NCBI GenBank assembly: GCA_900466575.1
Contig: UBMP01000019.1
Coordinates: 1 to 62,099 of the forward strand
Direction: 5' to 3'
Source of the DNA: Hyphomicrobiales bacterium
GTDB taxonomy: Bacteria > Pseudomonadota > Alphaproteobacteria > Rhizobiales > Rhizobiaceae
Length of the DNA: 62,099 nt
Position 1 is the first letter of the stretch; every line of letters starts with the position of its first letter. This document shows positions 21,456-42,255 of the stretch, piece by piece. The translations under genes were made by a program, and so were the position numbers. The notes under the pieces are model-generated. The model saw only the letters and a list, made by a program, of their open reading frames with translations, ran no database searches and was not told where the DNA came from.

Positions 21456-22313
21456 TCAGGCAGCCTGCGCGCTGGTGCCGTAGGTCACACCCTTTTCCTT
21501 CAGCCAGCGGCGATAGGCAATGGAGGACGCATCGGCCCGGGTCGGGATCTCGGAGCGTGGCTCAAGCGGCAGGAGAACCGGACGCTGGTTTTCCAGAATG
21601 ATGCGATCCTGCAGGAAGATAAGCTGCTGGAATTCGATCAGCGAACTCGTCGTCGAGACATCGTCGATCAGATACATGACGGGATGCGCACGGCAGCGAT
21701 CGACATCGACCGGCTGTACGAAAAGGCAGATCAGGTCCCAGCGGTTGGCGGAGTTGGGACAGGTCTTGTAAAGCAGCGTCGTGAAAGGCGTCATCACGCG
21801 ATAGATGTACTGCGTCATGATGCCTTCCTTGGCCGAAAGCGCCGCCTGCGGCTGGAAGAACTGGCAATTGGTCGCCCAGACTTCGTCCACGTCGCGACGA
21901 ATCTCGACATTGTAATGCTCGACTTCCGTATGCGGTTCGGAGCCTAGGATGTCTGTATGCACGAAGGGAAAATGCGCCATGTCGAGGAAGTTCTCGACAA
22001 TGCGCAGGCCGGAGGCCTTCACCGAAACCACACCGCAAGGCACATAGCGCCGATCCGGCTCATCCGCTTCCGGCATGGGGAAGACATCGCGCTCCGGCGT
22101 TCCCAGCGTCGTCCAGATGAAGCCGAAGCGCTGGCGGATCGGCAGCGGCTGATCGCTGCCTGCACGATAGACAGTCACCCCATCGGTCTCGCTGCGGACA
22201 ACCTTGAGATCGAAGCCCAGCAGCCGGTTCGATGAGGTCCCGAAGGGAATCTGGGCCTCAGTATCGATAACATACCATTGATCGATGGACGCCTTATCCT
22301 TTGCCTGCACCAT
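21456..22313 (-). CDS. Rieske-less oxygenase catalytic subunit (NdmC-like), copy 1
   Basis: 285 residues. The mononuclear-iron catalytic domain of a Rieske oxygenase is intact: bridging Asp111, His114 and His119 in ENFLDMAHFPFVHTDILG, and third ligand Asp236 in IFLQDRIILENQRP. No CxH...CxxH cluster motif exists anywhere. The N-terminus still shows Rieske-type flanking strands (WYVIDTEAQIP, LLGFDLKVVR, then RQRFGFIWTTLGTPE), as if the cluster loops were removed. NdmC, the methylxanthine N7-demethylase, is likewise Rieske-less and needs a partner Rieske domain plus a GST-like protein; here both are encoded at 27973-29288. A paralogue is at 36265-37134. The reaction, likely N-dealkylation of a purine, is inferred. 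Confidence 0.8.
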   Translation of the reverse strand: MVQAKDKASIDQWYVIDTEAQIPFGTSSNRLLGFDLKVVRSETDGVTVYRAGSDQPLPIRQRFGFIWTTLGTPERDVFPMPEADEPDRRYVPCGVVSVKASGLRIVENFLDMAHFPFVHTDILGSEPHTEVEHYNVEIRRDVDEVWATNCQFFQPQAALSAKEGIMTQYIYRVMTPFTTLLYKTCPNSANRWDLICLFVQPVDVDRCRAHPVMYLIDDVSTTSSLIEFQQLIFLQDRIILENQRPVLLPLEPRSEIPTRADASSIAYRRWLKEKGVTYGTSAQAA

Positions 22314-22336
22314 GGTCTCACCCTTTTTCCAAGCAG

Positions 22337-22396
22337 TCCGACAGGTCGGATACTAAAATGTTAGTCATAAGTCGCGGCGACTGACATCTAGTCGCC
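22337..22396. promoter_or_regulatory. cluster of three palindromes upstream of oxygenase copy 1
   Basis: Within 60 bases lie TCCGAC-AG-GTCGGA (22337-22350), ACTAA-AATG-TTAGT (22352-22365) and GGCGACT-N7-AGTCGCC (22376-22396), all perfect. They fill the gap between the permease stop and the oxygenase start, suggesting the oxygenase/guaD pair has its own regulated promoter. The outermost one could also act as a terminator stem but has no T-run. Confidence 0.5.
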
Positions 22397-22445
22397 AGGT
22401 GCGCGCGTGACGTTCAACCAGATTATGCGTGTCGCTCGCGCGGAG

Positions 22446-23381
22446 CTAGCGCACATTTCGATAATAGGGCTCCCCGAGCGCGGCCGGTGCCGCCATAGCG
22501 CGGCGCATCTTCTGCCATGCGATGACGGGGACGATGATAAAACCGAGCGTGCCGAGATAAGGCAGCATGGAAAGGAAGGCAGGCGCGACCGGCCAGCCCC
22601 TCGCCTGCCCGACAAAGCCGAGCGCGGTAATCAGTCCGAACAGCAGACCCGACAGTGCCGCCATTCCCGGTCGGTAGCCCGCGAAAATCACCAGCGCCAC
22701 GGCAATCCAGCCTCGCCCGGCAATGACGCCATCGGACCACGAGGGGACAAAAGCCAGAGTCAGATAACCGCCCGCCCCGCCGGCCAGTGCTGCGCCCGCC
22801 GTCACATAACAGAAGCGGATTGTGTTCACTGAGATGCCCGCCGCATCCGCTGCCGCCGGGTTTTCCCCGACGGCACGCATGTTCATCCCATGACGCGTGT
22901 AGAACATCAGATAGCTGAGGCCGATCGGCAGGATCAGATAGATGAGATAAATCAGGATATTCTGCGAGAAGAACGCCTTGCCGAGAATCGGGATGTCGGA
23001 CAGAAGCGGAATCGAGATCGGCTCAAACGTCGCAACCGCCGGCATGCCGGAATAGCTTCGACCAATGGTCTGGGCAAGCCCCGTTCCCATCAGCGTCAGC
23101 GCCAGCCCGCAGAGCACCTGGTTTGCCTTGATCATGACGGTCGCAAAGGCAAAGACCGCGCCGAAAATCGCCCCGACGGCGAGTGCGGCCAAAAAGCCAA
23201 GTACAGGCGAATGCGTGGCCGTAACGGCCGCGATGCCGGTCAATGCGCCCATCGCCATCAACCCCTCGACGCCGAGATTGACGACACCGACGCGTTCGGC
23301 CAGCACTTCGCCGATGGCTGCCAGCGCCAGCACGCCGCCGGCGAGAAACGCAGTCGTGAGCAGTCCGGTGATGAGATCCAT
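22446..23381 (-). CDS. BMP-type ABC transporter permease 2
   Basis: 311-residue inner-membrane permease of the branched-chain/nucleoside type, with eight to nine hydrophobic segments. Typical sequences are GVVNLGVEGLMAMGA and MNMRAVGENPAAADAAGISV (the EAA-like coupling loop). It pairs with the permease upstream (nine-base gap). Relatives of this set (B. subtilis NupNOPQ, spirochaete BmpA systems) import nucleosides or purines. Confidence 0.9.
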   Translation of the reverse strand: MDLITGLLTTAFLAGGVLALAAIGEVLAERVGVVNLGVEGLMAMGALTGIAAVTATHSPVLGFLAALAVGAIFGAVFAFATVMIKANQVLCGLALTLMGTGLAQTIGRSYSGMPAVATFEPISIPLLSDIPILGKAFFSQNILIYLIYLILPIGLSYLMFYTRHGMNMRAVGENPAAADAAGISVNTIRFCYVTAGAALAGGAGGYLTLAFVPSWSDGVIAGRGWIAVALVIFAGYRPGMAALSGLLFGLITALGFVGQARGWPVAPAFLSMLPYLGTLGFIIVPVIAWQKMRRAMAAPAALGEPYYRNVR

Positions 23382-23390
23382 GACGCGCTC

Positions 23391-24431
23391 CTAAACCTTG
23401 TCCCGCGTGATGCGGTAATATGAAAGCTCTTCACCGATCGCTGTCAGGAAGAGGATCAGGCCGGTCATCGCCAGCACCGCCGACGTAGTCAGCCCCTGCG
23501 TCTGCAGGATGATGCCGGAATTCTGGATGAAGGCCATGAAGGCGCCGGTGAAGATCACACCGATCAGCGAGCCCCGCGCCAGAACCGCGACCATGATGCC
23601 GATATAGCCGTAATTGTTGGAGATTCCGCCCTGCAGACGATGCACCGTGCCGGCCACTTCCAGCATACCGGCGAATCCTGCAATGGCACCCGAAAGCAGC
23701 ATGACCATGATGAGATGCCGACGCACCGGAATGCCCGCATATTTCGCGGCAGACGGGTTGGAGCCGGAAAGCCGGACCTCGTAGCCCCATTTCGTATTGC
23801 TCAGCACCAGCGCCAGAACGATGGCAATCAGGATCGCAATCGGGAAACCCCAATGGATGGCGCCCCAGAACTCCGGAATTTCCGCCGCAACCTTGGGCGT
23901 GGCGGAATTCGTCATGCGGTCATGCCACGGCCCGGTCGCAACGTAGTAGACGAGAAGGGCGGCGACGAAATTGAGGAGCAGCGTGGAAATCAGTTCGCTC
24001 ACATCCGCATAGGCCTTGGCGAGCGTGGGCACGAGGATCCAGATCGCACCGGCAGCAAATCCGCCAACGCCCATGAGGATCAGGCTCAGCCAATCAGGCG
24101 CGGGGATGAAGAGGCCGATCGCGGTCGCGGCGAAGGCGCCCGCATAGAACTGCCCTTCGGCCCCGATATTCCAGGCCCCGATCTGTTGGCCAATGGCGAC
24201 GGAGAGCCCGGTCAACATCAGCGGCATGAAGATGACGCCGAGATCCTGCAGCCCGAAACTGTCAAACAGCGAGGACGACAGCACCTCGCCGGCGAGCTCG
24301 AAAGGGTTGTGACCGGTGATGACCAGGATCAGTGCCGTGACGAGAAGCGCCAGTACAACCGCGATGACGCGAGCTGCAAACGCGATCAGCGGCGTCGAGG
24401 AAGGCAAGCGTTGGATGCGGTAGGCCATCAA
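23391..24431 (-). CDS. BMP-type ABC transporter permease 1
   Basis: 346 residues, about nine membrane segments. It contains GAWNIGAEGQFYAGAFAAT and the coupling-loop segment YEVRLSGSNPSAAKYAGIPV, hallmarks of nucleoside-type permeases. Its ATG overlaps the ATPase stop by four bases. Confidence 0.9.
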   Translation of the reverse strand: MMAYRIQRLPSSTPLIAFAARVIAVVLALLVTALILVITGHNPFELAGEVLSSSLFDSFGLQDLGVIFMPLMLTGLSVAIGQQIGAWNIGAEGQFYAGAFAATAIGLFIPAPDWLSLILMGVGGFAAGAIWILVPTLAKAYADVSELISTLLLNFVAALLVYYVATGPWHDRMTNSATPKVAAEIPEFWGAIHWGFPIAILIAIVLALVLSNTKWGYEVRLSGSNPSAAKYAGIPVRRHLIMVMLLSGAIAGFAGMLEVAGTVHRLQGGISNNYGYIGIMVAVLARGSLIGVIFTGAFMAFIQNSGIILQTQGLTTSAVLAMTGLILFLTAIGEELSYYRITRDKV

Positions 24432-26008
24432 GCAGCCTCCCCGGCATACCCATGCGCGCGGCCGCCCATCATCAGACCGATCTCGTCGATGTCGAGATTG
24501 TCATTGTCGAGAATTCCCATGATGCGGCCTTCATAAAGCACGGCGATGCGGTCTGAAAGGTTCAGCAGCTCTTCCAGTTCCTCGGAAATCAGGATCACGC
24601 CAGCGCCGGCATCGCGCAACTCAACGATATAGCGGAGCATCGTGTTGATCGCGCCGACATCCAGTCCACGGCTCGGATAGGCGGCGACGAGGATACGATC
24701 GGCGATGCGCATTTCACGACGGGCCACGAGGCGCTGCTGGTTGCCACCGGAGAGATTGCGGATCGGCATGGCGAAATCGGGGATCGCGACATCAGCAGCA
24801 GACGCGATTTCGCGCGCCAACTTGCCCGCCGCATCCCGGCTGAAGAAGCCGCCCTTCGCCACCGGCGGACGGCCATATTCGCGCATCACGGCATTGGTTG
24901 TGATCGACATGGCCGGAGCGAGCCCGCTATGCAGCCGGTCTTCCGGGATATGGCCGATTCCGGCAGCGGCGAACTCGCCGGCCTTGAGCCCCGCCATCGT
25001 CTTTCCCGCGATGATGATCTCACCGGACAAGGCCGGGCGGACGCCGGTCAGAACCTGGCTCAACTCGCGCTGTCCATTGCCGGCAACACCGGCAATGCCG
25101 AGGATTTCTCCGGCGCGGAGCGAAAAGTTTATGTCATGCAGCGCCGGCAGACCGTTATCGCCCAGCGCCGAGAGGCCGGCCACCTTCAAAACGGGCTCGG
25201 CGGACAGGGGCTTGGCATTCGCCGCGCGGCCGCGCATGTCATCCAGCACGATATCGCGGCCGACCATCAGCTTGGCGAGCATGCGCGGATCGCAATCGGC
25301 GGCTTTTTCGGTTGCGATCTTGCGGCCCTGCCGCAGGATGCTGATGCGATCGGAGATTTCCAAAACCTCGTCCAGCTTGTGGCTGATGAAGATGACCGAG
25401 TTTCCGCGCGAGACGAAATCGCGCAGCGCCCGGAATAGCTCGCGGGCCTCGGCGGGTGTGAGCACTGCCGTCGGTTCGTCGAGGATGAGAATCTTGGCAT
25501 TGCGGGAAAGCACGCGCAGGATTTCGACGCGCTGCTGCTCGCCGGTCGAAAGATCGCTGACGCGTGCGCCCGGCTTGACCTGCAGATTGAAGGCCCTTGC
25601 CAGCTCGGCGGTGCGCGCCTCGAGCACCGCAGCAGACGTCCGTTTCGGTGTCTGGTCCCACCCCAGATGGATGTTCTCGGCCACCGTGAAGGCCTGAACG
25701 AGCTTGAAATGCTGATGCACCATGCCGATGCCGGCGGCGATCGCCTGCACGGGCGAGGCGAACTGCCGTGCATAGCCGTCGATGATGATCTCGCCAGCAT
25801 CCGGCTGGTAGATGCCGGTGAGGATGTTCATGAGCGTGGATTTGCCTGCACCGTTTTCGCCCAGCAGCGCATGGATTTCCCCGGGCAAAACCTCGATATC
25901 GACATTCTCGTTGGCAATCACGCCGGGGAAATATTTGGCAATCCCCTTCAAGTAGACACGCGGCGGCGTGCCTGGAGATGATGCGGCGGCTGGGATTTCA
26001 TCTTGCAT
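24428..26008 (-). CDS. BMP-type ABC transporter ATPase (duplicated)
   Basis: 526 residues from the ATG at 26008; an in-frame upstream extension to 26140 is not supported. Two fused ATPase domains as in sugar/nucleoside importers. Domain 1 has Walker A GENGAGKST, signature LSTGEQQRVEI and Walker B ILILDEPTA. Domain 2 has a degenerate Walker A (GVAGNGQRE) and signature LSGGNQQRLVARRE. It powers import by the two permeases. The fused two-domain form is usual for this family. Confidence 0.92.
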   Translation of the reverse strand: MQDEIPAAASSPGTPPRVYLKGIAKYFPGVIANENVDIEVLPGEIHALLGENGAGKSTLMNILTGIYQPDAGEIIIDGYARQFASPVQAIAAGIGMVHQHFKLVQAFTVAENIHLGWDQTPKRTSAAVLEARTAELARAFNLQVKPGARVSDLSTGEQQRVEILRVLSRNAKILILDEPTAVLTPAEARELFRALRDFVSRGNSVIFISHKLDEVLEISDRISILRQGRKIATEKAADCDPRMLAKLMVGRDIVLDDMRGRAANAKPLSAEPVLKVAGLSALGDNGLPALHDINFSLRAGEILGIAGVAGNGQRELSQVLTGVRPALSGEIIIAGKTMAGLKAGEFAAAGIGHIPEDRLHSGLAPAMSITTNAVMREYGRPPVAKGGFFSRDAAGKLAREIASAADVAIPDFAMPIRNLSGGNQQRLVARREMRIADRILVAAYPSRGLDVGAINTMLRYIVELRDAGAGVILISEELEELLNLSDRIAVLYEGRIMGILDNDNLDIDEIGLMMGGRAHGYAGEAA

Positions 26009-26103
26009 GCGCGAGGAACCGATGAGGCTATCGTTGGAATTTGCCGAAACGACAAGAAACGGCCGGGCGGCCCGGCGCAAAACCGGACCGCCCGAGAGTT
26101 GGA

Positions 26104-27222
26104 TCAGGCGGACAGACCAGAAACGCCTTCGATCGACCAATCCCAGTGGTAGAGTTCGACTTCCGACATGGTCTTGCCGGCGGGCACCTTCACATTGCCC
26201 TTGGCGTCCTTGATTTCGCCGGTAAAGGGCGACCAGCCGCCGAGGATCTTGTCGCGCACGGCATCCGCCGCCTTGGCGACTTCAGCCGGAACCTTCTCGC
26301 CCCATTTGTCGCGATCGACACCCTTGCCCATGGCCAGGATCGTCTGTGAGGGCGACCACTTGCCGGCAAGGCGCTGGCCAACCTGATCGACATAGAAGTC
26401 CTTGAAGTCGATGACGACGGAGGAGACGTAGGAATTCGGGCCATAGCGGCGGATATCCGTGTTCCACATGGCGGCCCAGACGCCACGTTTTTCGGCAACC
26501 TGCAGATACGCGGCCTCATCCATGATGCCGAAGAGGAAGTCGCAACCATTGTCGATCAGAGCCGTGCCGGCCTGGGCAGCAGCCTGCGGGTCGAACCAGG
26601 AATTGATGACGATGGTCTGCAGGGTCGCCTTCGGATTGACCGAGCGCGCGCCCATCAGGAAGGCGTTCGTGCCGGAGAAGACGGAGGGCACCGGGAAGGA
26701 GGCGACATAGCCGAGCTTGCCGGTCTTCGACATCATGCCGGCGGCAACGCCGATGACATAGGTCGGATACCAGTGGGCAAGATAATACCAGCCGAGGTTC
26801 GGCATATCGGTACGGCCGTCGCATTCCATGAAGGCGACCTTCGGCGACCTCTTGACGACGTCATGCAGGAAGTCCCCGGTGGAGGACGTGTCGAAAATCA
26901 TGTTCGCGCCTTCGCTGACGAACTGGCGATAGGTGCGGGTCGCGTCCGCCGAGTACGGAACGTTCTCGACTTCGAGGATCTTCTTCAGCTTCGGATACTT
27001 TTCCTTCACCGCCAGCACGCCCTGGTGATGCGCCCAGGTCCAGCCTTCGTCGGTCACAGGGCCGACATGGCCGAAACCGATGATGGCATCTTCTTCCTTC
27101 ACCGCGGCCAAGGGCGCTGCGAAGGCCTGACGTGCGAGCGTGCCGGACATCAGCGCGGCTGCACCGCCAGCCGCCGTCATGTTCAAGAAACCGCGCCGGG
27201 ATAGATTGCGAATGTCGATCAT
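26104..27222 (-). CDS. BMP-family substrate-binding protein (Tat-exported)
   Basis: 372 residues from the ATG at 27222, preceded by AGGGG; an in-frame start at 27258 is less likely. The twin-arginine signal SRRGFLNM is followed by a hydrophobic stretch and AFAAP cleavage region. The body is the BMP/PnrA-like fold: IGFGHVGPVTDEGWTWAHHQG, YSADATRTYRQFVSEGANMIF and GNVKVPAGKTMSEVELYHWDW. PnrA-like proteins bind purine nucleosides. Position at the head of the importer operon in a purine island suggests a purine or purine-derivative ligand. Confidence 0.9.
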   Translation of the reverse strand: MIDIRNLSRRGFLNMTAAGGAAALMSGTLARQAFAAPLAAVKEEDAIIGFGHVGPVTDEGWTWAHHQGVLAVKEKYPKLKKILEVENVPYSADATRTYRQFVSEGANMIFDTSSTGDFLHDVVKRSPKVAFMECDGRTDMPNLGWYYLAHWYPTYVIGVAAGMMSKTGKLGYVASFPVPSVFSGTNAFLMGARSVNPKATLQTIVINSWFDPQAAAQAGTALIDNGCDFLFGIMDEAAYLQVAEKRGVWAAMWNTDIRRYGPNSYVSSVVIDFKDFYVDQVGQRLAGKWSPSQTILAMGKGVDRDKWGEKVPAEVAKAADAVRDKILGGWSPFTGEIKDAKGNVKVPAGKTMSEVELYHWDWSIEGVSGLSA

Positions 27223-27713
27223 GTGAACCCCTGTTTGTGTGTTGAACTTCTTGCTCACGGAACCGGCAGGCCGATCCGGGCGATTGTCCCTGTGGCTCGT
27301 TCAGCAATATCCGTGCCAGAAAATCCGAAATGCCACCCCGCCTACCGTGCCGTGCAGCCCGCGCAACGTTCCGCACGCTCTGCAGGTGCCTCGTCGAAAA
27401 TTTTCTGGACGACGAAGAGGCATACGTAGGGGTGGTAATTCCTTCTCCTGGGCGCTGAAACCGCTGCCGGAGGCGAGATTTTCAAAACGAACTTGTTCCG
27501 CATAGTGGGAAAAATTCGTCGAGTTTGATGCGTAATAAGCAACACCTGCGGCGAAAAAACCGCTTGAAAAGCCGCTCGACCTGCCGCTAAAGTGATCAAT
27601 AATAATGCATGATTAAACTTTAGGCAAATGCATGCGCAGATGCCGATTTGGCGGTCAGATGACAGCAAGAGGACAAACGGCCCGATACGAGAACAGCCCG
27701 AGGAGACACCGCC
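27223..27713. promoter_or_regulatory. divergent control region of the purine island
   Basis: 491 bases between the importer and oxygenase operons. It holds TCGTCG...CGACGA (27391-27396 and 27410-27415) enclosing the palindrome GAAAATTTTC, and two copies of ATGCATG (27605-27611, 27628-27634) 23 bases apart in an AT-rich stretch suited to a rightward promoter. No credible gene or known riboswitch fold was recognised. Confidence 0.45.
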
Positions 27714-27965
27714 TTGGCTGAGGTGGCATTCGTATTCTCAGGCGATCTCGCGCAAGCGAGCTTCCGCGGCTTCGCTCTCCATCGTGCGCAGCGCCTCGAT
27801 TTGCGGATCGATTTCGGAGCCGCCAGCGACCGTTTCTTCGACGTGACCGTCGTAGGCGACGAGGCGCTCATCGACATGTTCGAAATGGCCTGCAGCCTCG
27901 GCCCTTATGACTGCATCATCCATGACGTGACGCGGCGGGACATCGCGTCCGCCAGCACCAATTGA
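27714..27965 (+). CDS. acylphosphatase-like small protein
   Basis: 83 residues, TTG start, with AGGAG ten bases ahead. The pattern SGDLAQASFRGFALHRAQRL, then FFDVTVVGDEALIDMFEMAC and SLGPYDCIIHDVTRRDI, follows the acylphosphatase fold (FR loop with Arg18, G..GP..A.V end). The catalytic Asn of true acylphosphatases seems to be Asp33 (LRIDF), so activity is doubtful. It ends seven bases before the Rieske gene, heading the same operon; a binding or assembly role for the oxygenase is possible. The family call is my reading of the pattern. Confidence 0.45.
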   Translation: MAEVAFVFSGDLAQASFRGFALHRAQRLDLRIDFGAASDRFFDVTVVGDEALIDMFEMACSLGPYDCIIHDVTRRDIASASTN

Positions 27966-27972: not shown

Positions 27973-28656
27973 ATGACGATGACATCGCAACCCACCTGGT
28001 CGCCGGTGGCACTTTCAAACGTGATCGACCCCAGTACCTCAACCGGGGCCCTGGTAGACGGCGCGGAACTGGTCGTCTGGCGCGATTCCAGCGGCAAGGC
28101 GCATGTGTGGGAAGACCGCTGTCCGCATCGCGGCATGCGGATGAGCTTCGGCTTCGTGCGCGGCGACCACCTCGCCTGCCTCTATCACGGCTGGCAATAT
28201 GACACAGCCGGCCAATGCCGCCACATCCCGGCGCACCCGCAGCTCGAAGTGCCGCAGACGATCCGCATGCAAACTTTTGCGGCCGCCGAGCGCAACGGTA
28301 TCATCTGGGCGGGCGCGACGGCGGATGCCGATCCCACTCTGTTGCCAGCGGAGATAGCTGGCCTCGTTCCGGTCCGAAGCCTTTATGCAGATTGCACGGC
28401 CGCGAAGGCGCTAAAGGGGCTTGCCGCGACACCCCTTCCGATCTCGGCGGATGCGCCGACCGTTGAAGCAATCACCGAGAATTACATCTCCCTCACCGCC
28501 GGCCCAATCCGCCTGCTGGTCGCCATCCAGGCCCTAGGCAAGGAAAAGATCGCTCTGCACCTGATGGCGAACGAGGGCGCGCCGGTCGCCGCGCTCGCCC
28601 GCTATGCGCAGGCCCTCCGCCTCACCCTTGAAACAGCCCCAGCCGAGGCCGCCTGA
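27973..28656 (+). CDS. stand-alone Rieske [2Fe-2S] protein
   Basis: 227 residues. The Rieske domain occupies about residues 8-110 with ligands Cys50/His52 (CPHRG) and Cys69/His72 (CLYHGWQYD), sixteen residues between pairs, typical of oxygenase-type Rieske domains. The remaining 115 residues (from AAERNGIIWAGA) contain no iron-site motif ENFLDxxHxxxVH, so it cannot be a complete oxygenase. I infer that it passes electrons to the two Rieske-less catalytic subunits in this island, the role played by the extra Rieske domain of NdmD. No reductase gene is in the window. Confidence 0.85.
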   Translation: MTMTSQPTWSPVALSNVIDPSTSTGALVDGAELVVWRDSSGKAHVWEDRCPHRGMRMSFGFVRGDHLACLYHGWQYDTAGQCRHIPAHPQLEVPQTIRMQTFAAAERNGIIWAGATADADPTLLPAEIAGLVPVRSLYADCTAAKALKGLAATPLPISADAPTVEAITENYISLTAGPIRLLVAIQALGKEKIALHLMANEGAPVAALARYAQALRLTLETAPAEAA

Positions 28657-29288
28657 TGTCCGCCCTGACGCTCTACAATTACGAACTGGACGAAAACAGC
28701 TATCGCGTCCGCCTTCTTCTCTCCATGCTCGGCATCGAACACGAGATTTACTCTGTCAACATGCTGCCGGGCCGCGAGGAAAAATCACCGGCGCTTCTGG
28801 CGCTGAACCCCTGCGGCACGCTGCCCTTCATCAAGCAGGATGACGCGGTGATTTTTGGCGCGGAGGCGATACTGGCTCATCTCGCCAGGAACCACGACGC
28901 GGCCGGCAAATGGCTGCCGATCGACGGACCGGACTTTTCGGCGACCATGATGTGGCTGGGCTTCTGTGCAGGGCCGCTGCAGGCCGCCATCAAGGCACGT
29001 GAAGTCGCCGTCTTCGCGGTGGGCGGGCATCTGGAGCGCCTGAAGGCAGATGCCCGCGCCGCCTTCCGCATCATGGACGACCACATGACGCTCCGCCAGA
29101 TTGAAGGCCATGAATGGTTCGCCGCCGATTATCCGACGATTGCCGATCTCGCGCTGATCCCGAGTTTTGCGCTCTCGCGCGACTTCAACATCGATCACGA
29201 AGAGTTTCCGGCGCTGCGGCTGTGGCTGCGTCGCTTCCGCAGGCTTCCCGGCTTCATCACCATGCCGGGTATTCCCGACTACCATTGA
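28656..29288 (+). CDS. glutathione S-transferase-like protein (NdmE-like)
   Basis: 210 residues. Thioredoxin-like N-terminal domain (YNYELDENSYRVRLLLSMLG with candidate Ser14, and NPCGTLPFIKQDDAVIFGAEAILAHLA, the GSH gamma-Glu cis-Pro motif), then the all-helical C-terminal domain with YPTIADLALIPSF. Its ATG shares one base with the Rieske stop, so they are coupled. NdmE, a GST homologue, is a structural partner of Rieske-less NdmC; the same pairing here is the key contextual clue. Ordinary GST activity is not excluded. Confidence 0.85.
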   Translation: MSALTLYNYELDENSYRVRLLLSMLGIEHEIYSVNMLPGREEKSPALLALNPCGTLPFIKQDDAVIFGAEAILAHLARNHDAAGKWLPIDGPDFSATMMWLGFCAGPLQAAIKAREVAVFAVGGHLERLKADARAAFRIMDDHMTLRQIEGHEWFAADYPTIADLALIPSFALSRDFNIDHEEFPALRLWLRRFRRLPGFITMPGIPDYH

Positions 29289-32662: not shown

Positions 32663-33267
32663 AGCGCTACGATTGCATGAAGCTCCTCGCCGCGCGGCTC
32701 AAGGACGAGCTGGTCATCCTGTCGCTCGGCGCCTCGGTGGATGAATGGTACAACGCCGCGCCGCATATGCGCGAAGCCAGCCTCTTCCAGCAGCAGCTCG
32801 GCTGCGTGACGCCGCAGGCCTTCGGGCTGGCCGCCGGTCTGCCGCATCGCCGCATCATCTCGCTCGATACCGATGGCGGCATGATGTTCAATCTCGGCAT
32901 TCTCGCCACGCTTGGTAACGAGCAGCCGAAGAACCTCTTCACCGTCGTCTGGGACAACGAGTGCTACCAGTCCATCGGCGGCCCGCCGACGCACACGGCC
33001 TTCGGCCGCGTCGATATCGCCGCGATTGCCCGCGGGGCAGGCGTCGAGAATGCTTACACCGCCCGCACGCTCGAAGAGTTCGAAGCCCATTGCGAGGCCG
33101 GTCTGAAGGCGGACGTGCCCTATATCGTCGTCGCCAAGGTGGCCGGCACCGTCCAGCCCGACATCAAGCGCAAGCATTCGGACGGTCGTGAAGACAAGTA
33201 CATCTTCGTCCGCCATGTCGAAGCTACCGAAGGCATCGTCATCATGGGTCCCAGCGAGCATAACTGA
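32659..33267 (+). CDS. ThDP-dependent decarboxylase, beta (PP) subunit
   Basis: 202 residues, the diphosphate-binding half. The ThDP/Mg motif is SLDTDGGMMFNLG (Asp72, Gly73) ending at Asn100 in WDNECYQS, as in ComE-type subunits. It works with the preceding alpha subunit. Set among purine genes, it may process a 2-oxoacid made from the substrate side chain; this is inference only. Confidence 0.8.
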   Translation: MKRYDCMKLLAARLKDELVILSLGASVDEWYNAAPHMREASLFQQQLGCVTPQAFGLAAGLPHRRIISLDTDGGMMFNLGILATLGNEQPKNLFTVVWDNECYQSIGGPPTHTAFGRVDIAAIARGAGVENAYTARTLEEFEAHCEAGLKADVPYIVVAKVAGTVQPDIKRKHSDGREDKYIFVRHVEATEGIVIMGPSEHN

Positions 33268-36264: not shown

Positions 36265-37134
36265 ATGGCAAAGACCACCGACCGCGTCGCACTCGACGAC
36301 TGGTATGCTATCGCAACGGCAAGCGACCTGACCGAGACCATGCAGACGACCCGGCTACTCGGGCAGGCAATCGAATACAACCTCGGCGCGGACGGAAACC
36401 CGCTGGTGCGGGAAATCCTCGATGACGGCGCCCGCGGTCCGGCTCTTCCGGTGCAGGTGAGATACGGCTGCCTTTTCACGACGCTGGGCAGCCCGACGAA
36501 GGATATTGTCCAAATCGCGGAAGCCGAGGAAGATGACCGCCGCTTCGTTCTCTGCGGGTGGGTGACGATGCGTGCATCCGGCCTGCGCGTGGTCGAGAAC
36601 TTTCTTGACATGGCCCATTTTCCCTTCGTGCACACCGATATTCTGGGCTCGGAACCGCATACGGAAGTGCCCGGCTATGCCAGCGAAATCCGGCGCGATG
36701 TGGATGAGGTCTGGGCGACGAACTGCACCTTCTTCCAGCCGCGCATCGCCGCAACGGAAAACAAGGGCGATTTCGTGCACCTGACCTATCGCGTCCCCTC
36801 GCCCTTCGTTGTGATGCTCTATCGCGTCTGCCCGACCTCGCCGAACCGGCTCGACGCGATCGCACTGTTCATCCAGCCGATGGAGGACGGGCTCTGCCGG
36901 GCACAGCCGGTCATGTATCTGGTCGATCCGATCTCAACCGATAATGCGCTGCTGAAATTCGAGCAGGTGATCTTCATGCAGGATCGCATCATCGTTGAAA
37001 ACCAGCGCCCTCTCCTCATGCCGCTGGAACCGCGCGCGGAAATCCCGACGCGGGCCGACTCCTCCTCCATTGCCTATCGACGTTGGCTGAAGGAAAAGGG
37101 CATCCGCTTCGGCACGACGGCGGGCAGCGCCTGA
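36265..37134 (+). CDS. Rieske-less oxygenase catalytic subunit (NdmC-like), copy 2
   Basis: 289 residues from the ATG at 36265 (GGGAG upstream). Same architecture as copy 1 at 21456-22313: bridging Asp115, His118/His123 in ENFLDMAHFPFVHTDILG, third ligand Asp240 in IFMQDRIIVENQRP, and no Rieske ligands. By eye the two are about 60% identical over the catalytic part and diverge in the first 90 residues, which could set different regioselectivity or build a heteromer. Its stop overlaps the xanthine-dehydrogenase-type gene, tying oxygenation to purine hydroxylation. Confidence 0.8.
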   Translation: MAKTTDRVALDDWYAIATASDLTETMQTTRLLGQAIEYNLGADGNPLVREILDDGARGPALPVQVRYGCLFTTLGSPTKDIVQIAEAEEDDRRFVLCGWVTMRASGLRVVENFLDMAHFPFVHTDILGSEPHTEVPGYASEIRRDVDEVWATNCTFFQPRIAATENKGDFVHLTYRVPSPFVVMLYRVCPTSPNRLDAIALFIQPMEDGLCRAQPVMYLVDPISTDNALLKFEQVIFMQDRIIVENQRPLLMPLEPRAEIPTRADSSSIAYRRWLKEKGIRFGTTAGSA

Positions 37135-40100
37135 TGCAGGTCGTCTCACCAGCCTCGCTTTCGGACGCGCTGGCGCTCCAATCGCAAGATGGCAATCGTC
37201 TTTGCGCGGGCGGAACTGCCTTGCAGCTGGAATGGACTAAGGGATTAGCTAAGCCGGACAGGTTGGTAAGCCTCGCTTCCATTTCCGAACTGAAGGGCAT
37301 TGACGCTGGTTTAGAAAGTTTGAGGGTCGGGGCACTAACGACGCTTGCGGACCTGATCCGCGCTCGCGATATCAGCGTCGCCCTCCCCTTACTTCACCAC
37401 GCGCTGGGCAAGATCGCGGCCCCCTCGATCCGAAACCAGGCGACTCTGGGTGGCAATATCGCAGGCCTGAGCGGATGTCTTTTGCCTGCTCTCCTCGTCC
37501 TGGAAGCCAAGGTCGCTTGGCTAACGCCTGCGGGCGCGACTGAGATGCCTCTCGAGAACTGGCTGAGCGGGCATTCTCTCAATGGGATCCTTACGCATGC
37601 CATGCTGCCATCACAAGGCCCTGAGGATCGGTGGACCTTCCGCAAGATTGGTCTGCGCGCCGCCTTTACGCCAAGCGTGATCAATGTTGCGGCGCGTCTA
37701 TCGCTGGGAGCGGAGGGCGACGTTCTCTCCGCACGCATCGCAGTCGGCGGGGGCATCGTAGCGCCGGTCCGACTGTCGGAGGCTGAGAGGTTTCTGGAGG
37801 GTCAAGCCCTGGAAGCGGTCGACTGGAAAGGGCTGCATGCGTGCCTGATGGAGACCATAGCCGCTCCGGCGGACGCCTTCCGCTCGGCAGCCTATCGAAA
37901 GAGCGTTGCGGCCAATGCTCTGGTGCATGGACTAGGGGGCGAGCTTCCTGATCGCAAAGTATACCGCGCCTGCGCTCCCGAGTACGATGTTGTCCCGCCT
38001 GAGGGTGAGCTTCTGCTGTCGCGGCAAGAGCAGCCGAACGCCTGGCACGAACGACCGGACATGGCGGCAAAAGTCGCAGGCCGCCTCAATTATCTGACCG
38101 ATGTCAGAAAGCCGGACATGCTTGTCGGTCGCATTCTCCGTGCCGGCCTGCCGCATGCACGTATTCTTTCCCTGGACACGTCTGTCGCCGAAGCGCTGCC
38201 GGGCGTCGTCTCTGTTGTAACCCATCGGGATATCAAGGGGAGCAATGCCTTCGGGATCGTCATCCAGGATCAGCCGGCACTCTGTTACGACAAGGTGCGC
38301 CATTGCGGTGACCCTGTGGCTGCCGTTGCAGCCATTGATGCCGAGACGGCCGAGCGTGCGCTATCCCTCATCCGGGTTGAATACGAAGAGTTGGAGACCG
38401 TGACCGATGCTCAGGCAGCCCTTCTGCCGGACGCGCCGTTTGTCCACGACAACGGCAACCTGCAACGCGAACTGCATTTCTCCCGCGGGGACGCCGAGGC
38501 GGGTTTTCGCCGCGCGGCCCATGTCATCGAAGAAACCTATGTGACGCCGCGGCAGATGCATGGTTTCATGGAAACGGAAGGCGGCCACGCCTATGTCGAC
38601 GAGGATGGCCTGCTGCACGTGTTCGCCGGCGGTCAGCACGGCGCGCGTGACAGACTGCAGCTTGCCCGCATCCTGGCAATGCCCGAAGAGAGGATCCGCG
38701 TCGTGACCTCGCCGACCGGCGGTGCGTTCGGCGGGAAGGATGAATTAACCGTTCAGCCGGTCCTCGCCCTTCTGGCGCTCAAGTCCCGCAGACCCGTGCG
38801 CCTTCAGTTGTCGCGTGCCGAGTCCGTCCTTGCCGGACAGAAGCGGAATCCGATGTCGATCCGCATGAAGACAGCTATCGATAGTGAGGGCAAATTGGTC
38901 GCTCACGAGGTGGACGTGCTTGCCGAGGCCGGTGCCTACGCGTCGCTGGGGCCCGGAGTTCTGGAAACCGCCCTGGAACATGCCGCCGGACCTTATATTA
39001 TCGAAAATGTCCGCACCTCCGGTAGGCTGGCTTATACCAACAACGGAACCTGCGGCGCATTCCGGGGCTTCGGCGCGAACCAGCTGACGTTCGCAATCGA
39101 ATGCCAAATGGACAAACTGGCCGCCGAGTGCGGCCTTACGGCACTTGAAATTCGCCGTCGAAACCTCCGCAAACCCACAGATGCTGGCTATCTCGGTCAG
39201 TTGGTGGCCCCGACCGAACGCTCGGAGGAAATGCTGGCAGCAGCCGGCGCATCCAAACTCTGGACATGTCCGCAGGGGCCGCAGCCGGACGGCGAATGGA
39301 TCGTCGGCACCGGCATGGCTCTCAATTATCAGGGCAACGGACTGGGTTCCGTTGTGCCGGATCCTGCAGGCGGCCGGCTGTCGCTTTCAAAAACGGGGAT
39401 GATCGAGGGCGGATTCGGGTTGGATGAACTGGGCCAAGGCCTCCTGACCCTGGTCAAGGCGACGGTGGCGGCCGAACTCGGCTGCGCGCGTCAGGACGTC
39501 GAAGCCGTTACAGGAGACACCGCGGCCGCGCCGGATTCCGGCTCGACAACCGCATCGCGCGGAACCTATGTCGTCTGGGCCACCACACGACGCGCCGCAC
39601 CGGAATTCGCTGACAAGATGCGCAAGGCGGCTGGCCGCATCCTCGGTCGAGATCCGGACATGCTGGCGCTAGCCCCTGGGGGCTTCAAGGAACGCGGAAC
39701 GAACAGCGGTGACCTCCTCCTGAGTTTCCGGCAGCTTGCTGATGAACTCGATGAGGGCGAACTGCCGAGCGTCACGGTCGCTTATGAGTTCCCCAAGAAC
39801 GATTACACGGCCGGCAACGCCCGGCTGATCTTTGCCTTCGGCGCTGCACTCGCCCGCGTCGCGGTCAGCCGTGTGACCGGCGAGGTTCGCGTTCTCGATC
39901 TTCACCAGCACACAGCCGCCGGTCCGGTGATGGACCTTGCCGCCTATCTCGGCCAGATCGAAGGCGGAGCGGTGCAGGGTTTAGGTTTCACGCTGACGGA
40001 AGACGCACCGATGCGGGACGCCCGATATATGACCGCGAATCTCGACACCTATATGCTGCCGGGTATTCAGGACTCTGCACGGCACATGCGGGTCTTTGCG

Positions 40101-40274
40101 CTGGAAAGCCTCGATGCAAACGACGCCTACGGTCCCCGCGGGGTCGGCGAGCTCGGGATTGGTGCAGTGACGCCGGCCATTGCGAACGCCGTTTTCGCGG
40201 CGACCGGTCATCTGCGGACCGTCACACCCTTTCAGCCGGAAGAGATTCTGGCGGCGCTTGTGGAGCGGCCATGA
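37134..40274 (+). CDS. xanthine dehydrogenase-type hydroxylase, fused FAD and molybdopterin subunits
   Basis: 1046 residues from the ATG overlapping the oxygenase stop. Residues 1-270 are a CoxM/XdhA-type FAD domain (CAGGTALQLEW; SIRNQATLGGNIAGLSGCLLPAL). Residues about 320-1046 are the molybdopterin domain (VTSPTGGAFGGKDELT; YTNNGTCGAFRGFGANQ), with catalytic Glu1006 in GVGELGIGA. The iron-sulphur part is a separate downstream gene. FAD fused in front of Moco without FeS differs from the usual XdhA (FeS-FAD)/XdhB (Moco) and from the three-subunit form. Purine hydroxylation (hypoxanthine, xanthine or a modified purine) is inferred from context. No XdhC chaperone is seen here. Confidence 0.9.
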   Translation: MQVVSPASLSDALALQSQDGNRLCAGGTALQLEWTKGLAKPDRLVSLASISELKGIDAGLESLRVGALTTLADLIRARDISVALPLLHHALGKIAAPSIRNQATLGGNIAGLSGCLLPALLVLEAKVAWLTPAGATEMPLENWLSGHSLNGILTHAMLPSQGPEDRWTFRKIGLRAAFTPSVINVAARLSLGAEGDVLSARIAVGGGIVAPVRLSEAERFLEGQALEAVDWKGLHACLMETIAAPADAFRSAAYRKSVAANALVHGLGGELPDRKVYRACAPEYDVVPPEGELLLSRQEQPNAWHERPDMAAKVAGRLNYLTDVRKPDMLVGRILRAGLPHARILSLDTSVAEALPGVVSVVTHRDIKGSNAFGIVIQDQPALCYDKVRHCGDPVAAVAAIDAETAERALSLIRVEYEELETVTDAQAALLPDAPFVHDNGNLQRELHFSRGDAEAGFRRAAHVIEETYVTPRQMHGFMETEGGHAYVDEDGLLHVFAGGQHGARDRLQLARILAMPEERIRVVTSPTGGAFGGKDELTVQPVLALLALKSRRPVRLQLSRAESVLAGQKRNPMSIRMKTAIDSEGKLVAHEVDVLAEAGAYASLGPGVLETALEHAAGPYIIENVRTSGRLAYTNNGTCGAFRGFGANQLTFAIECQMDKLAAECGLTALEIRRRNLRKPTDAGYLGQLVAPTERSEEMLAAAGASKLWTCPQGPQPDGEWIVGTGMALNYQGNGLGSVVPDPAGGRLSLSKTGMIEGGFGLDELGQGLLTLVKATVAAELGCARQDVEAVTGDTAAAPDSGSTTASRGTYVVWATTRRAAPEFADKMRKAAGRILGRDPDMLALAPGGFKERGTNSGDLLLSFRQLADELDEGELPSVTVAYEFPKNDYTAGNARLIFAFGAALARVAVSRVTGEVRVLDLHQHTAAGPVMDLAAYLGQIEGGAVQGLGFTLTEDAPMRDARYMTANLDTYMLPGIQDSARHMRVFALESLDANDAYGPRGVGELGIGAVTPAIANAVFAATGHLRTVTPFQPEEILAALVERP

Positions 40275-40744
40275 CGACCAGCTTCACATTGAACGGCCAA
40301 GCCTGCTCCCTCACCTGTCAGCCCGAAACACCTCTGGTAAAAGTCCTGCGGGACGAACTCGCCATGACGGCCACCAAAGAAGCTTGCTCCATCGGTCGCT
40401 GCGGTGCTTGCCTCGTGCTGATCAATGGAAAGGCGGCCAATGCCTGCCTGACCATGGCATTCCAGATCGCAGGCGCAGATGTGGTGACCACCGAAGGACT
40501 GGAGAACGATCCGCTCGCGACCGCCATTCGGCTCGCGCTGGCGGAAGAGAACGCCTTCCAGTGCGGCTATTGTGCACCGGGCTTCGTCATGGCGCTGGTC
40601 GCCCTGCTGAAGGAACATCCCGCCCCCAGCGAAGACGAAATCCGCGCCAGCCTCGAAGGTAATATCTGCCGTTGCACCGGCTATCATTCCATCATGCGAG
40701 GCGCGTTAGCGGCCGTCCGCTTGGTGCAGGAGACAATGAAATGA
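40271..40744 (+). CDS. xanthine dehydrogenase-type 2Fe-2S subunit
   Basis: 157 residues with both clusters: plant-type ferredoxin Cys39, Cys44, Cys47, Cys59 (ACSIGRCGACLV...AC) and the helical-domain Cys98, Cys101, Cys133, Cys135 (CGYC...CRC). It carries electrons from Moco to FAD in the preceding protein. Four-base overlaps on both sides show tight coupling. Confidence 0.93.
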   Translation: MTTSFTLNGQACSLTCQPETPLVKVLRDELAMTATKEACSIGRCGACLVLINGKAANACLTMAFQIAGADVVTTEGLENDPLATAIRLALAEENAFQCGYCAPGFVMALVALLKEHPAPSEDEIRASLEGNICRCTGYHSIMRGALAAVRLVQETMK

Positions 40745-42255
40745 CCATTGCAATTTCCAACTTCGAACCGCGAACAGAAGGCGCGAAGGCCTTTCTCTCG
40801 CGTGTCCGCAAACAGATGTTGATTGACGGACAATGGCGCGATGCGGCGGGCGGAGCTGTCTTCTCGACCTTCGATCCCGCCTCGGGTCGGAAGCTCGCCG
40901 ACCTTGCCGAGGGCAATGCCACCGATGTCGACGAGGCGGTGGCGAGCGCGCGCAAGGCGCTCACGAGCCAGGCCTGGCGCGGGCTGACGCCCTCTGCGCG
41001 CGGCAAGCTGCTATGGCGGATCGCCGACCTCATTGACGCCCATGTGGAGGAGCTGGCCGAACTGGAAACGCTCGACCAGGGCAAAAGCTACAGAACCGGG
41101 CGCTTCGGCGAAATTCCCGCATCTGCCGAACAGTATCGCTACTATGCGGGTTATTGCACCAAAATTCTGGGCTCGACCATTCCGACCTCAATTGCCTATC
41201 AGCCAGAGGGCAAACAGATTTTTGCCTATACGGTGCGAGAACCCATAGGCGTGGTCGCCGCGATCACGCCCTGGAACTCACCCATGCTGATGGCGGCGAT
41301 GAAACTCGCGCCGGCGCTTGCGGCCGGTTGCACGATCGTGCTGAAGCCTGCCGAAGAAACTTCGCTGACCGCCCTCCGTCTGGGCGAATTGATGCTCGAG
41401 GCAGGTCTGCCGGCAGGCGTCGTCAATATCGTCACCGGCTTTGGCGAAACGGTCGGAGCGGCGCTGACGGCACATCCGGACGTCGACAAGATCGGCTTCA
41501 CCGGTTCCACGGAAGTCGGGAAACTTATTGTCAAAGCCGCAGCCGGAAACCTCAAGAAGCTGACGCTGGAGCTTGGCGGCAAGTCGCCGGCCATCGTCAT
41601 GCCGGATGCCGATATGGCGCTGGCCATTCCCGGCATCGCACGGGGAATCTTTGCGAATTCCGGTCAGGTCTGCGTGGCGGGTTCACGCGTTTACGCCCAT
41701 CGCAGCATCTGCGATGAATTGACGGAAGGCTTGGCGCGGGCGGCGAGCAAGCTGGTTCTCGGACACGGACTTGATGAAAGGACCGACCTCGGCCCCCTCG
41801 TCAATCGCAAACAGGCCGATCGTGTAGCTGGCTTCATTGATGAGGGACGCCGCGAGGGCGCGGAAATTGCGTCTGGCGGTCGGCAGGCGGGCGATTTGGG
41901 GACCTTCTTCGAACCGACCGTCGTCACCGGCGTGCGGCGTGACATGCGAATGATGCGCGAGGAGATCTTCGGCCCTGTCGTTGCCGTCACGCCGTTCGAC
42001 GATGTGGAAGAGGCGATCGCCTTCGCCAACGACACCGACTATGGCCTGGCCGGCAGCGTCTGGACGCAGGACCTGTCGCAGGCCCATCGGCTTGCCGGGC
42101 GCATCCGTTCCGGGACGGTCTGGATCAACTGCCATTCCTATTTCTCGCCGGAACTGCCCAAAGGCGGTCACAAGCAGTCTGGGTGGGGGTATGAGAATGG
42201 CGCCCAGGGGCTTGACAATTATCTGGAGACAAAGACGGTTTGCAGCGTCATTTGA
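40741..42255 (+). CDS. NAD(P)-dependent aldehyde dehydrogenase
   Basis: 504 residues, start at the ATGA overlap. Catalytic Cys311 (FANSGQVCVAGSR) and Glu277 ([13 protein letters not shown]), plus the Rossmann motif IGFTGSTEVG. It is similar to betaine- or aminobutyraldehyde-type dehydrogenases. As the last gene of the rightward operon, it may oxidise an aldehyde released by oxidative N-dealkylation (formaldehyde or a longer side-chain aldehyde). Confidence 0.9.
   Translation: MTIAISNFEPRTEGAKAFLSRVRKQMLIDGQWRDAAGGAVFSTFDPASGRKLADLAEGNATDVDEAVASARKALTSQAWRGLTPSARGKLLWRIADLIDAHVEELAELETLDQGKSYRTGRFGEIPASAEQYRYYAGYCTKILGSTIPTSIAYQPEGKQIFAYTVREPIGVVAAITPWNSPMLMAAMKLAPALAAGCTIVLKPAEETSLTALRLGELMLEAGLPAGVVNIVTGFGETVGAALTAHPDVDKIGFTGSTEVGKLIVKAAAGNLKKLTLELGGKSPAIVMPDADMALAIPGIARGIFANSGQVCVAGSRVYAHRSICDELTEGLARAASKLVLGHGLDERTDLGPLVNRKQADRVAGFIDEGRREGAEIASGGRQAGDLGTFFEPTVVTGVRRDMRMMREEIFGPVVAVTPFDDVEEAIAFANDTDYGLAGSVWTQDLSQAHRLAGRIRSGTVWINCHSYFSPELPKGGHKQSGWGYENGAQGLDNYLETKTVCSVI

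What the first reader, a model, noticed from the sequence alone, without database searches (positions are those of the whole stretch)
21456..42255. Purine-linked Rieske oxygenase with Rieske and catalytic domains on separate proteins
Seen: two catalytic subunits with intact His/His/Asp iron sites but no Rieske ligands, one free Rieske protein (Cys50/His52/Cys69/His72), a coupled GST-like protein, and around them adenine deaminase, guanine deaminase, a cog0402 amidohydrolase, a xanthine-dehydrogenase-type enzyme, an ALDH and a BMP-type importer. Known: NdmC is Rieske-less, takes electrons from the extra Rieske domain of NdmD and needs the GST-like NdmE. Inferred: an N-dealkylase for modified purines (methylxanthine or N6-prenyl adenine/cytokinin) in a plant-associated bacterium, with the released aldehyde going to the ALDH and the base to deaminases and hydroxylase.
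Basis: partly seen in the sequence, partly recalled or inferred. Interest (0 to 1): 0.92.

Follow-up and report, generated by a model that had tools for sequence, protein, structure and literature searches.

The report
Two-part Rieske oxygenase for purines
A rhizobial gene cluster encodes an oxygen-using enzyme whose electron-carrying half and reacting half are made as separate proteins, together with a GST-like partner, an unrecognised small partner protein and a spare set of purine-breakdown enzymes; it is a new variant of a known caffeine-demethylase design, with the substrate still unknown.

Summary
Two VanA-type catalytic subunits (21456-22313-, 36265-37134+) carry the His/His/Asp iron site but no Rieske ligands. 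A free Rieske protein (27973-28656+) has Cys50/His52/Cys69/His72 and overlaps a GST-like gene by one base. Neighbours are purine enzymes and a BMP-type importer. The design works like NdmC/NdmD/NdmE, but the Rieske part is not fused to a reductase, and no reductase-like gene lies in range in 80 of 80 related loci (control).

New here:
(1) Each half appears to keep a remnant of the other (for the catalytic N-terminus; for the Rieske C-terminus, structure only).
(2) A conserved acylphosphatase-like protein (27714-27965+) sits just before the Rieske gene. Homologues occur in 89 of 96 split loci and 0 of 24 Rieske-reductase fusion loci.
(3) The genome has canonical xanthine dehydrogenase, guanine deaminase and adenine deaminase elsewhere; the window holds a second, divergent set. 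This favours a modified purine.

N-dealkylation seems likelier than ring hydroxylation but is not shown. Methylxanthine is possible; cytokinin is unsupported. Electron donor and substrate are unknown. Verdict: new variant of a known kind.

The parts
20063..21451 (-). guanine deaminase (second, divergent copy in this genome); starts four bases after cat1 ends
   Evidence: TIGR02967 412.8 bits, cut-off 375.4; another copy at C13 scores 571.8
21456..22313 (-). catalytic subunit 1 (cat1): mononuclear-iron domain with a Rieske-like remnant at the N-terminus
   Evidence: PF19112; H114/H119/D236/D111 invariant; Foldseek TMq 0.80-0.88 to the SxtT/GxtA chains; residues 1-72 vs Rieske domain prob 95.5
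22446..23381 (-). ABC importer permease 2 (BMP system)
   Evidence: homologous to the annotated permease of L011
23391..24431 (-). ABC importer permease 1 (BMP system)
24428..26140 (-). ABC importer ATPase (BMP system)
26104..27258 (-). BMP/PnrA-type substrate-binding protein
   Evidence: PF02608 E 2e-31
27714..27965 (+). acylphosphatase-like small protein (83 aa, TTG start); recalled catalytic Arg/Asn positions not conserved in the family; proposed adaptor
   Evidence: homologues in 76 of 89 loci; 13 of 14 split and 0 of 20 fused loci; PF00708 in 15 of 33 family members, none for the window protein itself
27973..28656 (+). free Rieske [2Fe-2S] protein with a probable truncated catalytic-domain remnant at the C-terminus
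   Evidence: PF00355 E 2.3e-22; AlphaFold pLDDT 94.3; Foldseek TMq 0.68-0.73 to SxtT/GxtA
28656..29288 (+). GST-like partner (NdmE-like)
   Evidence: PF13417/PF02798; homologue in 78 of 80 loci
29329..31128 (+). adenine-deaminase-type enzyme (second, divergent copy)
   Evidence: TIGR01178 354.5 bits, under cut-off 472.5; another copy at C13 scores 600.8
31125..32057 (+). LysR regulator
   Evidence: sequence; homologous to the annotated LysR gene of L011
32162..32662 (+). TPP enzyme subunit alpha (sulfopyruvate-decarboxylase-like)
   Evidence: TIGR03845 106.2 bits, under cut-off 147.95; 80-97% identical where found
32659..33267 (+). TPP enzyme subunit beta
   Evidence: PF02775; TIGR03846/TIGR03297 under cut-off
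33283..34839 (+). GMC-family oxidoreductase
   Evidence: PF00732/PF05199
34877..36262 (+). amidohydrolase, nearest to MTA/SAH-deaminase and N-ethylammeline-hydrolase models, all under cut-off
36265..37134 (+). catalytic subunit 2 (cat2)
   Evidence: 57% identical to cat1; in the alignment
37134..40274 (+). PucC/PucD-type xanthine dehydrogenase, FAD and molybdopterin parts in one chain
   Evidence: TIGR03196 pucD 697 bits, cut-off 783.65; TIGR03199 pucC 193.3, cut-off 306.05 (scanned from 37128)
40271..40744 (+). PucE-type [2Fe-2S] subunit
   Evidence: TIGR03198 181.9 bits, cut-off 254.3
40741..42255 (+). aldehyde dehydrogenase
   Evidence: best model phenylacetaldehyde dehydrogenase StyD 610.9 bits, cut-off 850 (scanned from 40735)

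Best explanation
This is a two-chain Rieske oxygenase that works like NdmC/NdmD/NdmE but with a free Rieske protein. Cat1 and cat2 each hold the mononuclear iron. The shared Rieske protein sits beside them and passes electrons from its [2Fe-2S] cluster across a chain boundary to that iron, as neighbouring subunits do in ordinary Rieske trimers. The GST-like protein holds the pair together. The acylphosphatase-like protein stands in for the missing covalent link to a reductase, docking or stabilising the free Rieske protein so that a separate reductase can feed it. A BMP-type importer brings in a modified purine; the oxygenase removes or hydroxylates the modification; the cluster's own divergent deaminases and xanthine dehydrogenase take the product on. 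My preferred reaction for cat1 is N-demethylation of an N-methylated guanine, for example 7-methylguanine, because guanine deaminase follows it four bases later. Shown by sequence: the architecture, the conserved ligands and the gene linkage. Inferred: complex formation, electron path, adaptor role, substrate and reaction. The confidence is for the architecture acting on a purine; I put N-dealkylation as the reaction at about 0.5, so this overlaps with the first rival.
For: Ligands complete on separate chains and invariant. Both chains match the same complete enzymes, SxtT/GxtA. Gene coupling: Rieske and GST overlap by one base; small gene, Rieske and GST stand in a row with seven bases between the first two. 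Rieske and GST homologues in 78 of 80 loci each. Fused relatives carry the same Rieske module on a reductase, and PMC4408171 (passages) describes the NdmCDE complex and its GST dependence. Small protein in 89 of 96 split and 0 of 24 fused loci. 60 of 80 loci hold a purine enzyme within the fetched flanks. Canonical purine enzymes lie elsewhere in the genome.
Against: No complex, activity or substrate has been tested. 20 of 80 loci show none of the purine enzymes sought within the fetched flanks. No dedicated reductase is known for most members. One catalytic homologue stands without Rieske, GST or small gene within 12 kb (L012), and L065 and L066 have none in range. Six split loci and one lack the small gene. 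Catalytic subunits are about 30% identical to HpxD-annotated purine hydroxylases. The catalytic-domain remnant in the Rieske protein rests on structure prediction only, with rmsd of 4.3-7.8 angstrom to the SxtT/GxtA chains: 0 of 49 members match VanA_C and the profile comparison is weak (prob 5.6).
Confidence: 0.68

Rival explanations
1. Ring hydroxylase: the catalytic subunits hydroxylate a purine carbon (C8 or C2), as HpxD does, and do not remove an N-alkyl group. Guanine would become 8-oxoguanine, which the 8-oxoguanine-deaminase-like neighbour of some relatives turns into urate.
For: HpxD-annotated proteins match at about 30% identity. The compact cassettes of Shinella, Rhizobium johnstonii and Paracoccus carry an 8-oxoguanine-deaminase-like enzyme; the Paracoccus one is over the NCBIfam cut-off, 669 vs 532 bits, the Rhizobium one under it, 371.4. 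PMC7373994 (passages) ties hpxDE-like genes, 8-hydroxyguanine/guanine deaminases and DIOX_N oxygenases together. SxtT and GxtA are the nearest solved structures, and listed abstracts describe such enzymes as C-H hydroxylases.
Against: The genome already has a canonical xanthine dehydrogenase (1341.6 bits) and canonical deaminases, so a second route for ordinary purines would be redundant. The closest characterised architecture, NdmCDE, is an N7-demethylase (PMC4408171).
Confidence: 0.27
2. Cytokinin N6-dealkylase: the system strips the N6 side chain of isopentenyladenine or zeatin, giving adenine and an aldehyde for the ALDH.
For: Adenine-deaminase-type gene in 41 of 80 loci and an ALDH in 18 of 80. 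Rhizobial names are frequent among the 80 loci.
Against: Guanine deaminase (30 of 80) and 8-oxoguanine-deaminase-like enzymes (22 of 80) are also common, and 62 of 80 loci show no such ALDH in range. The system also occurs in Rhodobacteraceae and acetic acid bacteria. No such paper in the listings.
Confidence: 0.05
3. The free Rieske protein serves another oxygenase and the catalytic subunits are dead or accept electrons from elsewhere; the linkage is neutral.
For: No interaction data; other Rieske domains exist in the genome (7 places in all); one catalytic homologue stands alone (L012).
Against: Rieske homologue in range in 78 of 80 loci of varied gene order. Iron ligands invariant in 48 of 48 rows. 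In 24 relatives the homologous module is fused to a reductase at a locus chosen for its catalytic subunit.
Confidence: 0.05
4. The oxygenase acts on a non-purine N-heterocycle such as trigonelline or another betaine-like compound, and the purine genes are neighbours by chance.
For: In 20 of 80 loci none of the purine enzymes sought is in range. One S. meliloti pSymA locus has two catalytic subunits beside a different molybdenum hydroxylase.
Against: 60 of 80 loci have a purine enzyme in range; cat1 and guanine deaminase are four bases apart in the window; a fused relative sits near hpxO and another near a nucleobase symporter.
Confidence: 0.12

Closest known systems
NdmC-NdmD-NdmE (7-methylxanthine N7-demethylase of Pseudomonas putida CBB5)
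   Same: Catalytic subunit without Rieske cluster, Rieske domain on another chain, GST-like third protein, purine context (PMC4408171, passages). Catalytic subunits of fused Klebsiella, Sinorhizobium and Pseudomonas loci are 44-47% identical to cat1.
   Different: Here the Rieske protein is free, not fused to a reductase; no reductase gene nearby; an acylphosphatase-like protein is added; two catalytic subunits share one Rieske protein; substrate unknown. The CBB5 NdmC sequence itself was not compared.
SxtT / GxtA Rieske oxygenases
   Same: Nearest solved structures to both halves.
   Different: One chain holds both domains (each half matches a different part of the same chain); they act on saxitoxin-type compounds (entry titles).
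HpxD/HpxE (molybdenum-independent purine hydroxylase)
   Same: Related catalytic domain, about 30% identity over residues 54-275; similar neighbours in print (deaminases, DIOX_N oxygenases; PMC7373994, passages).
   Different: One-chain build of HpxD is recalled, not examined here; no free Rieske protein or GST was tied to it here.
NdmA / NdmB
   Same: Rieske N-demethylases of methylxanthines (PMC4408171); PDB relatives of cat1 (about 37 bits).
   Different: Rieske and catalytic domains in one chain; lower score than SxtT (99.8 bits).
Acylphosphatase (PF00708)
   Same: 15 of 33 members of the small-protein family match it at E up to 0.1, best 8.1e-11.
   Different: The window member itself has no match. 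The Arg position after SF is variable and the Asn region is not conserved (roles of these residues recalled).

Membership tests
NdmCDE-type oxygenase | catalytic subunit with His/His/Asp iron site and no Rieske ligands | tested here: met
   (ligand roles recalled)
NdmCDE-type oxygenase | Rieske domain on a separate chain | tested here: met
NdmCDE-type oxygenase | that Rieske domain fused to an FMN/NADH/ferredoxin reductase (NdmD) | tested here: not met
   227-aa ORF with only PF00355; no reductase-like hit in 80 of 80 loci. Not filed as an NdmCDE member, only as working like it
NdmCDE-type oxygenase | GST-like partner encoded with it | tested here: met
NdmCDE-type oxygenase | physical complex needed for activity | not testable with these tools
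   only single chains were modelled
NdmCDE-type oxygenase | N7-demethylation of 7-methylxanthine | not testable with these tools
   needs an assay
VanA-type Rieske oxygenase superfamily (catalytic part) | VanA_C domain | tested here: met
   PF19112 in 48 of 48
HpxD-type purine hydroxylase | one-chain oxygenase with its own Rieske domain (recalled) | tested here: not met
   no PF00355 match at cat1 or cat2
Acylphosphatase (small protein) | Pfam PF00708 over cut-off | tested here: not met
   no match for the window protein; 21.9 bits vs cut-off 22.5 for the Rhizobium johnstonii homologue; 15 of 33 members at E up to 0.1
Acylphosphatase (small protein) | catalytic Arg and Asn (recalled) | tested here: not met
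   by eye on 77 aligned sequences: Arg position variable (Arg in the window protein itself), Asn region not conserved
Canonical purine catabolic set | guanine deaminase equivalog | tested here: met
   412.8 bits over 375.4
Canonical purine catabolic set | adenine deaminase equivalog | tested here: not met
   354.5 bits under 472.5
Canonical purine catabolic set | PucD equivalog | tested here: not met
   697 bits under 783.65

The most novel reading that the evidence does not exclude
A Rieske oxygenase was duplicated and the copies lost opposite halves, giving an obligate two-chain enzyme. Where the Rieske chain was not fused to a reductase, an inactive acylphosphatase-fold protein became its adaptor, so that a separate reductase could drive it. 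The machine, with its own divergent deaminases and dehydrogenase, strips modifications from RNA- or DNA-derived purines, a salvage route not yet described as far as I know.
Probability: 0.25. Interest if true: 0.78.

Novelty: new variant of a known kind. Interest (0 to 1): 0.58.

Why it matters
In 2015 NdmCDE was described as the first reported case of a Rieske domain split off from its oxygenase (PMC4408171, passages). In a sample of 297 genomes of the window's family, 53 appear to hold the free-Rieske form (51 by score of the catalytic subunit and two by inspection; 14 of the 53 were inspected and all 14 are split, besides the window itself), and in 20 more the best match is a fused system. 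In the class it is rarer: 6 of 289 sampled genomes, the window's included, have a catalytic subunit at E up to 1e-50. The mutual exclusion between reductase fusion and the acylphosphatase-like protein gives a direct test of how a free Rieske protein finds its electrons. The cluster may also reveal how soil and plant bacteria use modified purines, for which I recall no general catabolic route.

Tried and rejected
Simple gene fission was considered and is disfavoured: the catalytic subunit keeps a Rieske-like N-terminus (prob 95.5). The other half of that argument, the remnant in the Rieske protein, rests on a Foldseek TMq of 0.68-0.73 to SxtT/GxtA (rmsd 4.3-7.8 angstrom), above the 0.51 that a 115-residue Rieske domain alone could give; Pfam finds no VanA_C there in 49 of 49 members.

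Dedicated reductase elsewhere: the best VanB-type hit in the genome (C20:2786-3730) lies among genes that look like a dimethylamine/trimethylamine monooxygenase cluster (names recalled from sequence), so it is probably not dedicated to this system. Six FAD-binding_6 places in the genome, that one included, were listed and the others not followed.

Riboswitch control: no Rfam match in the window. In five relatives the only match was a group II intron.

Direction of fusion: the fused catalytic subunits (5 rows) form one clade (98/76) and the fused Rieske parts (4 rows) one clade (98/94), consistent with one fusion. Long outgroup branches leave the root, and so the direction, open.

Substrate from the TPP, GMC and ALDH genes: considered N-linked side chains with a 2-oxo acid step; no evidence decides it.

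Not available for comparison: the CBB5 NdmC sequence and a cytokinin deaminase sequence. The DOI that I recalled for the original NdmCDE paper is not held.
Full report
CHECK OF THE OBSERVATION. The window is contig C14 of a 5.14 Mb genome. The two catalytic subunits lie at 21456-22313 (-) and 36265-37134 (+; the second gene begins at ATG 36265, inside a longer open frame). They are 57% identical. The Rieske protein lies at 27973-28656 (+) and shares one base with the GST-like gene at 28656-29288. Cys50, His52, Cys69 and His72 are invariant in 49 of 49 aligned Rieske proteins; His114, His119, Asp236 and Asp111 are invariant in 48 of 48 catalytic subunits (ligand and bridge roles recalled from the family). 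The genome-wide Rieske search finds seven places in the genome and one in the window. The stated neighbours are real.

WHAT ELSE IS THERE. A small ORF at 27714-27965 (+), with seven bases between it and the Rieske start codon, belongs to a conserved family with the motif FEMAxSLGPxDC. Fifteen of 33 members match Pfam acylphosphatase at E up to 0.1, best 8.1e-11; the window member itself does not. By eye, the position of the catalytic arginine varies (the window protein has Arg there) and the asparagine region is not conserved (roles recalled). A second module carries LysR, a two-part TPP enzyme, a GMC oxidoreductase, an amidohydrolase, cat2, a PucCDE-type xanthine dehydrogenase and an ALDH.

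RELATIVES. A plasmid search gave 306 records (repeated with a spread listing). Flanks are at most 10 kb and eight loci are shorter than 20 kb; some genomes give two loci. In these 80: Rieske 78, GST-like 78, small protein 72, BMP importer 61, adenine-deaminase type 41, TPP enzyme 39, guanine deaminase 30, the amidohydrolase of the cat2 module 23, GMC 23, 8-oxoguanine-deaminase-like 22, molybdenum subunit 20, ALDH 18, reductase-like 0; 60 have at least one of the purine enzymes sought and 20 have none. The reductase queries do find the reductase in 5 of 5 loci known to hold one, L015-L019. Fourteen of the 20 also lack the BMP importer; in eleven of these (L031, L035-L038, L040, L053, L054, L057, L079, L084) all four of Rieske, GST-like, small protein and cat1 are present. 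Against the linkage: Roseicitreum locus L012 has a catalytic subunit with no Rieske, GST or small-protein homologue within 12 kb, and L065 and L066 have none in range.

THREE ARRANGEMENTS. (a) Rieske module fused to a reductase, as in NdmD: Klebsiella, Pseudomonas fulva, Sinorhizobium meliloti and S. medicae. (c) Free Rieske protein with no reductase found: the window and the other split loci inspected. Among 297 genomes of the family, 73 have a catalytic subunit at E up to 1e-50 and 72 a small-protein match at E up to 1e-6. Of 51 genomes with a strong small-protein match (E under 1e-15), all 51 have a catalytic subunit; 49 of 51 genomes with a best catalytic score of 360 bits or more have a strong match, against 2 of 22 below it (Fisher p 3e-40 for small protein against catalytic subunit over the 297, relatedness not controlled). 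I then fetched stretches of all 22 low-scoring genomes and of 12 of the 51 high-scoring ones, the 12 including both that lacked a strong match. Twenty of the 22 are fused, and 0 of these 20 have the small gene in the stretch (one stretch, L134, is only 5 kb); the other two are split and have it. Of the 14 split loci in all, 13 have it. In the earlier 89 loci, 82 are split, 76 of them with the small gene; 4 are fused, none with it; 3 have no Rieske gene in range. The totals are 89 of 96 split and 0 of 24 fused. The two sets may overlap in strains, and relatedness was not corrected for. Split loci without it: L061 (a contig of 4.7 kb), L072-L074, L087, L093 and L135.

REMNANTS OF THE MISSING HALVES. 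The first 72 residues of the catalytic subunits match the N-terminus of the Rieske protein (probability 95.5, E 1.5e-8 for this one comparison). The Rieske protein is modelled with mean pLDDT 94.3; after its Rieske domain it has a strand, a helix, four strands and a long helix. Foldseek aligns it along whole SxtT/GxtA chains with TMq 0.68-0.73 and rmsd 4.3-7.8 angstrom; the Rieske domain alone, about 115 of 227 residues, could give at most about 0.51. The profile comparison of this C-terminal part with the catalytic domain is weak (probability 5.6, P 0.007) but lands on the FVQP...H segment, and no Pfam catalytic domain is found there in 49 of 49 members. I read this as duplication followed by opposite losses, with moderate confidence. 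Fused relatives carry the same C-terminal part between Rieske domain and reductase. Trees put the fused forms in one clade each but do not fix the root.

WHICH PURINE. The genome holds canonical enzymes elsewhere: xanthine dehydrogenase C13:54911-57187 (1341.6 bits, cut-off 849.5), guanine deaminase C13:51520-52722 (571.8, cut-off 375.4) and adenine deaminase C13:159750-161387 (600.8, cut-off 472.5). The window holds a second, divergent set: guanine deaminase 412.7, adenine-deaminase type 354.5 (under its cut-off), PucD type 697 (under its cut-off). A duplicate set tied to an oxygenase is best explained by a substrate that the ordinary enzymes cannot use. Guanine deaminase begins four bases after cat1 ends. 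NdmC, with NdmD and NdmE, removes the N7-methyl of 7-methylxanthine (PMC4408171, passages). This makes an N-methylguanine, such as 7-methylguanine, my first guess for cat1, at roughly one chance in four; I have no direct evidence. The chief rival is ring hydroxylation of the HpxD kind (PMC7373994, passages). Cytokinins are not favoured by anything found.

ELECTRON SUPPLY. No reductase lies near in 80 of 80 loci. The best VanB-type gene in the genome looks committed to a methylamine oxygenase cluster (recalled names). The donor is therefore unknown. The small protein is kept by most split forms, those with a separate reductase included, and was not found in fused ones; I propose that it takes over what the covalent link does in NdmD. 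This is inference.

PRINT. [quoted passage not shown] A review of 2025 (PMC12445004, passages) has no occurrence of NdmC in its main text. My searches (openly licensed PMC papers only; listings seen) showed no paper on the free-Rieske form or on the small protein; most subscription papers are not held.

VERDICT. Observation confirmed; interpretation partly supported; new variant of a known kind. Interest 0.58.

Noticed in passing
G000:C20:1-6217 (L107): A cluster that looks like dimethylamine and trimethylamine monooxygenase genes, with a VanB-type reductase at 2774-3739; names recalled from sequence, not scanned.
   Followed up: partly
window 44787-52470: An outer membrane efflux protein, a peptidase-C39 ABC exporter, an HlyD-type protein, a lipid A-type acyltransferase and a ketoacyl synthase in a row: possibly an export system for a modified peptide.
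   Followed up: no
window 8381-13191: An NAD-synthase-family protein, an AMP-binding ligase and an asparagine synthase in a row, beside a flagellin gene at 7284-8237.
   Followed up: no
L100 2262-2903 and L101 5001-5642: Two predicted viral contigs (IMG/VR) encode a relative 38% identical to cat1 over residues 59-281.
   Followed up: no
L031, L035, L037, L038, L040, L057, L079: In these seven minimal loci a D-2-hydroxyacid dehydrogenase gene follows the GST-like gene closely on the same strand (Pfam of the L079 protein).
   Followed up: partly
L017: On S. meliloti pSymA the fused system has two catalytic subunits in tandem beside an aminotransferase annotated alanine--glyoxylate and a separate molybdenum hydroxylase with a cytochrome c gene.
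   Followed up: no
L012 11977-12843: Roseicitreum plasmid: a catalytic subunit 64% identical to cat1 stands without Rieske, GST or small-protein homologue within 12 kb.
   Followed up: partly
window 32162-33267: The two-part TPP enzyme is among the most conserved parts of module 2 (80-98% identity where found); its reaction is unexplained.
   Followed up: partly
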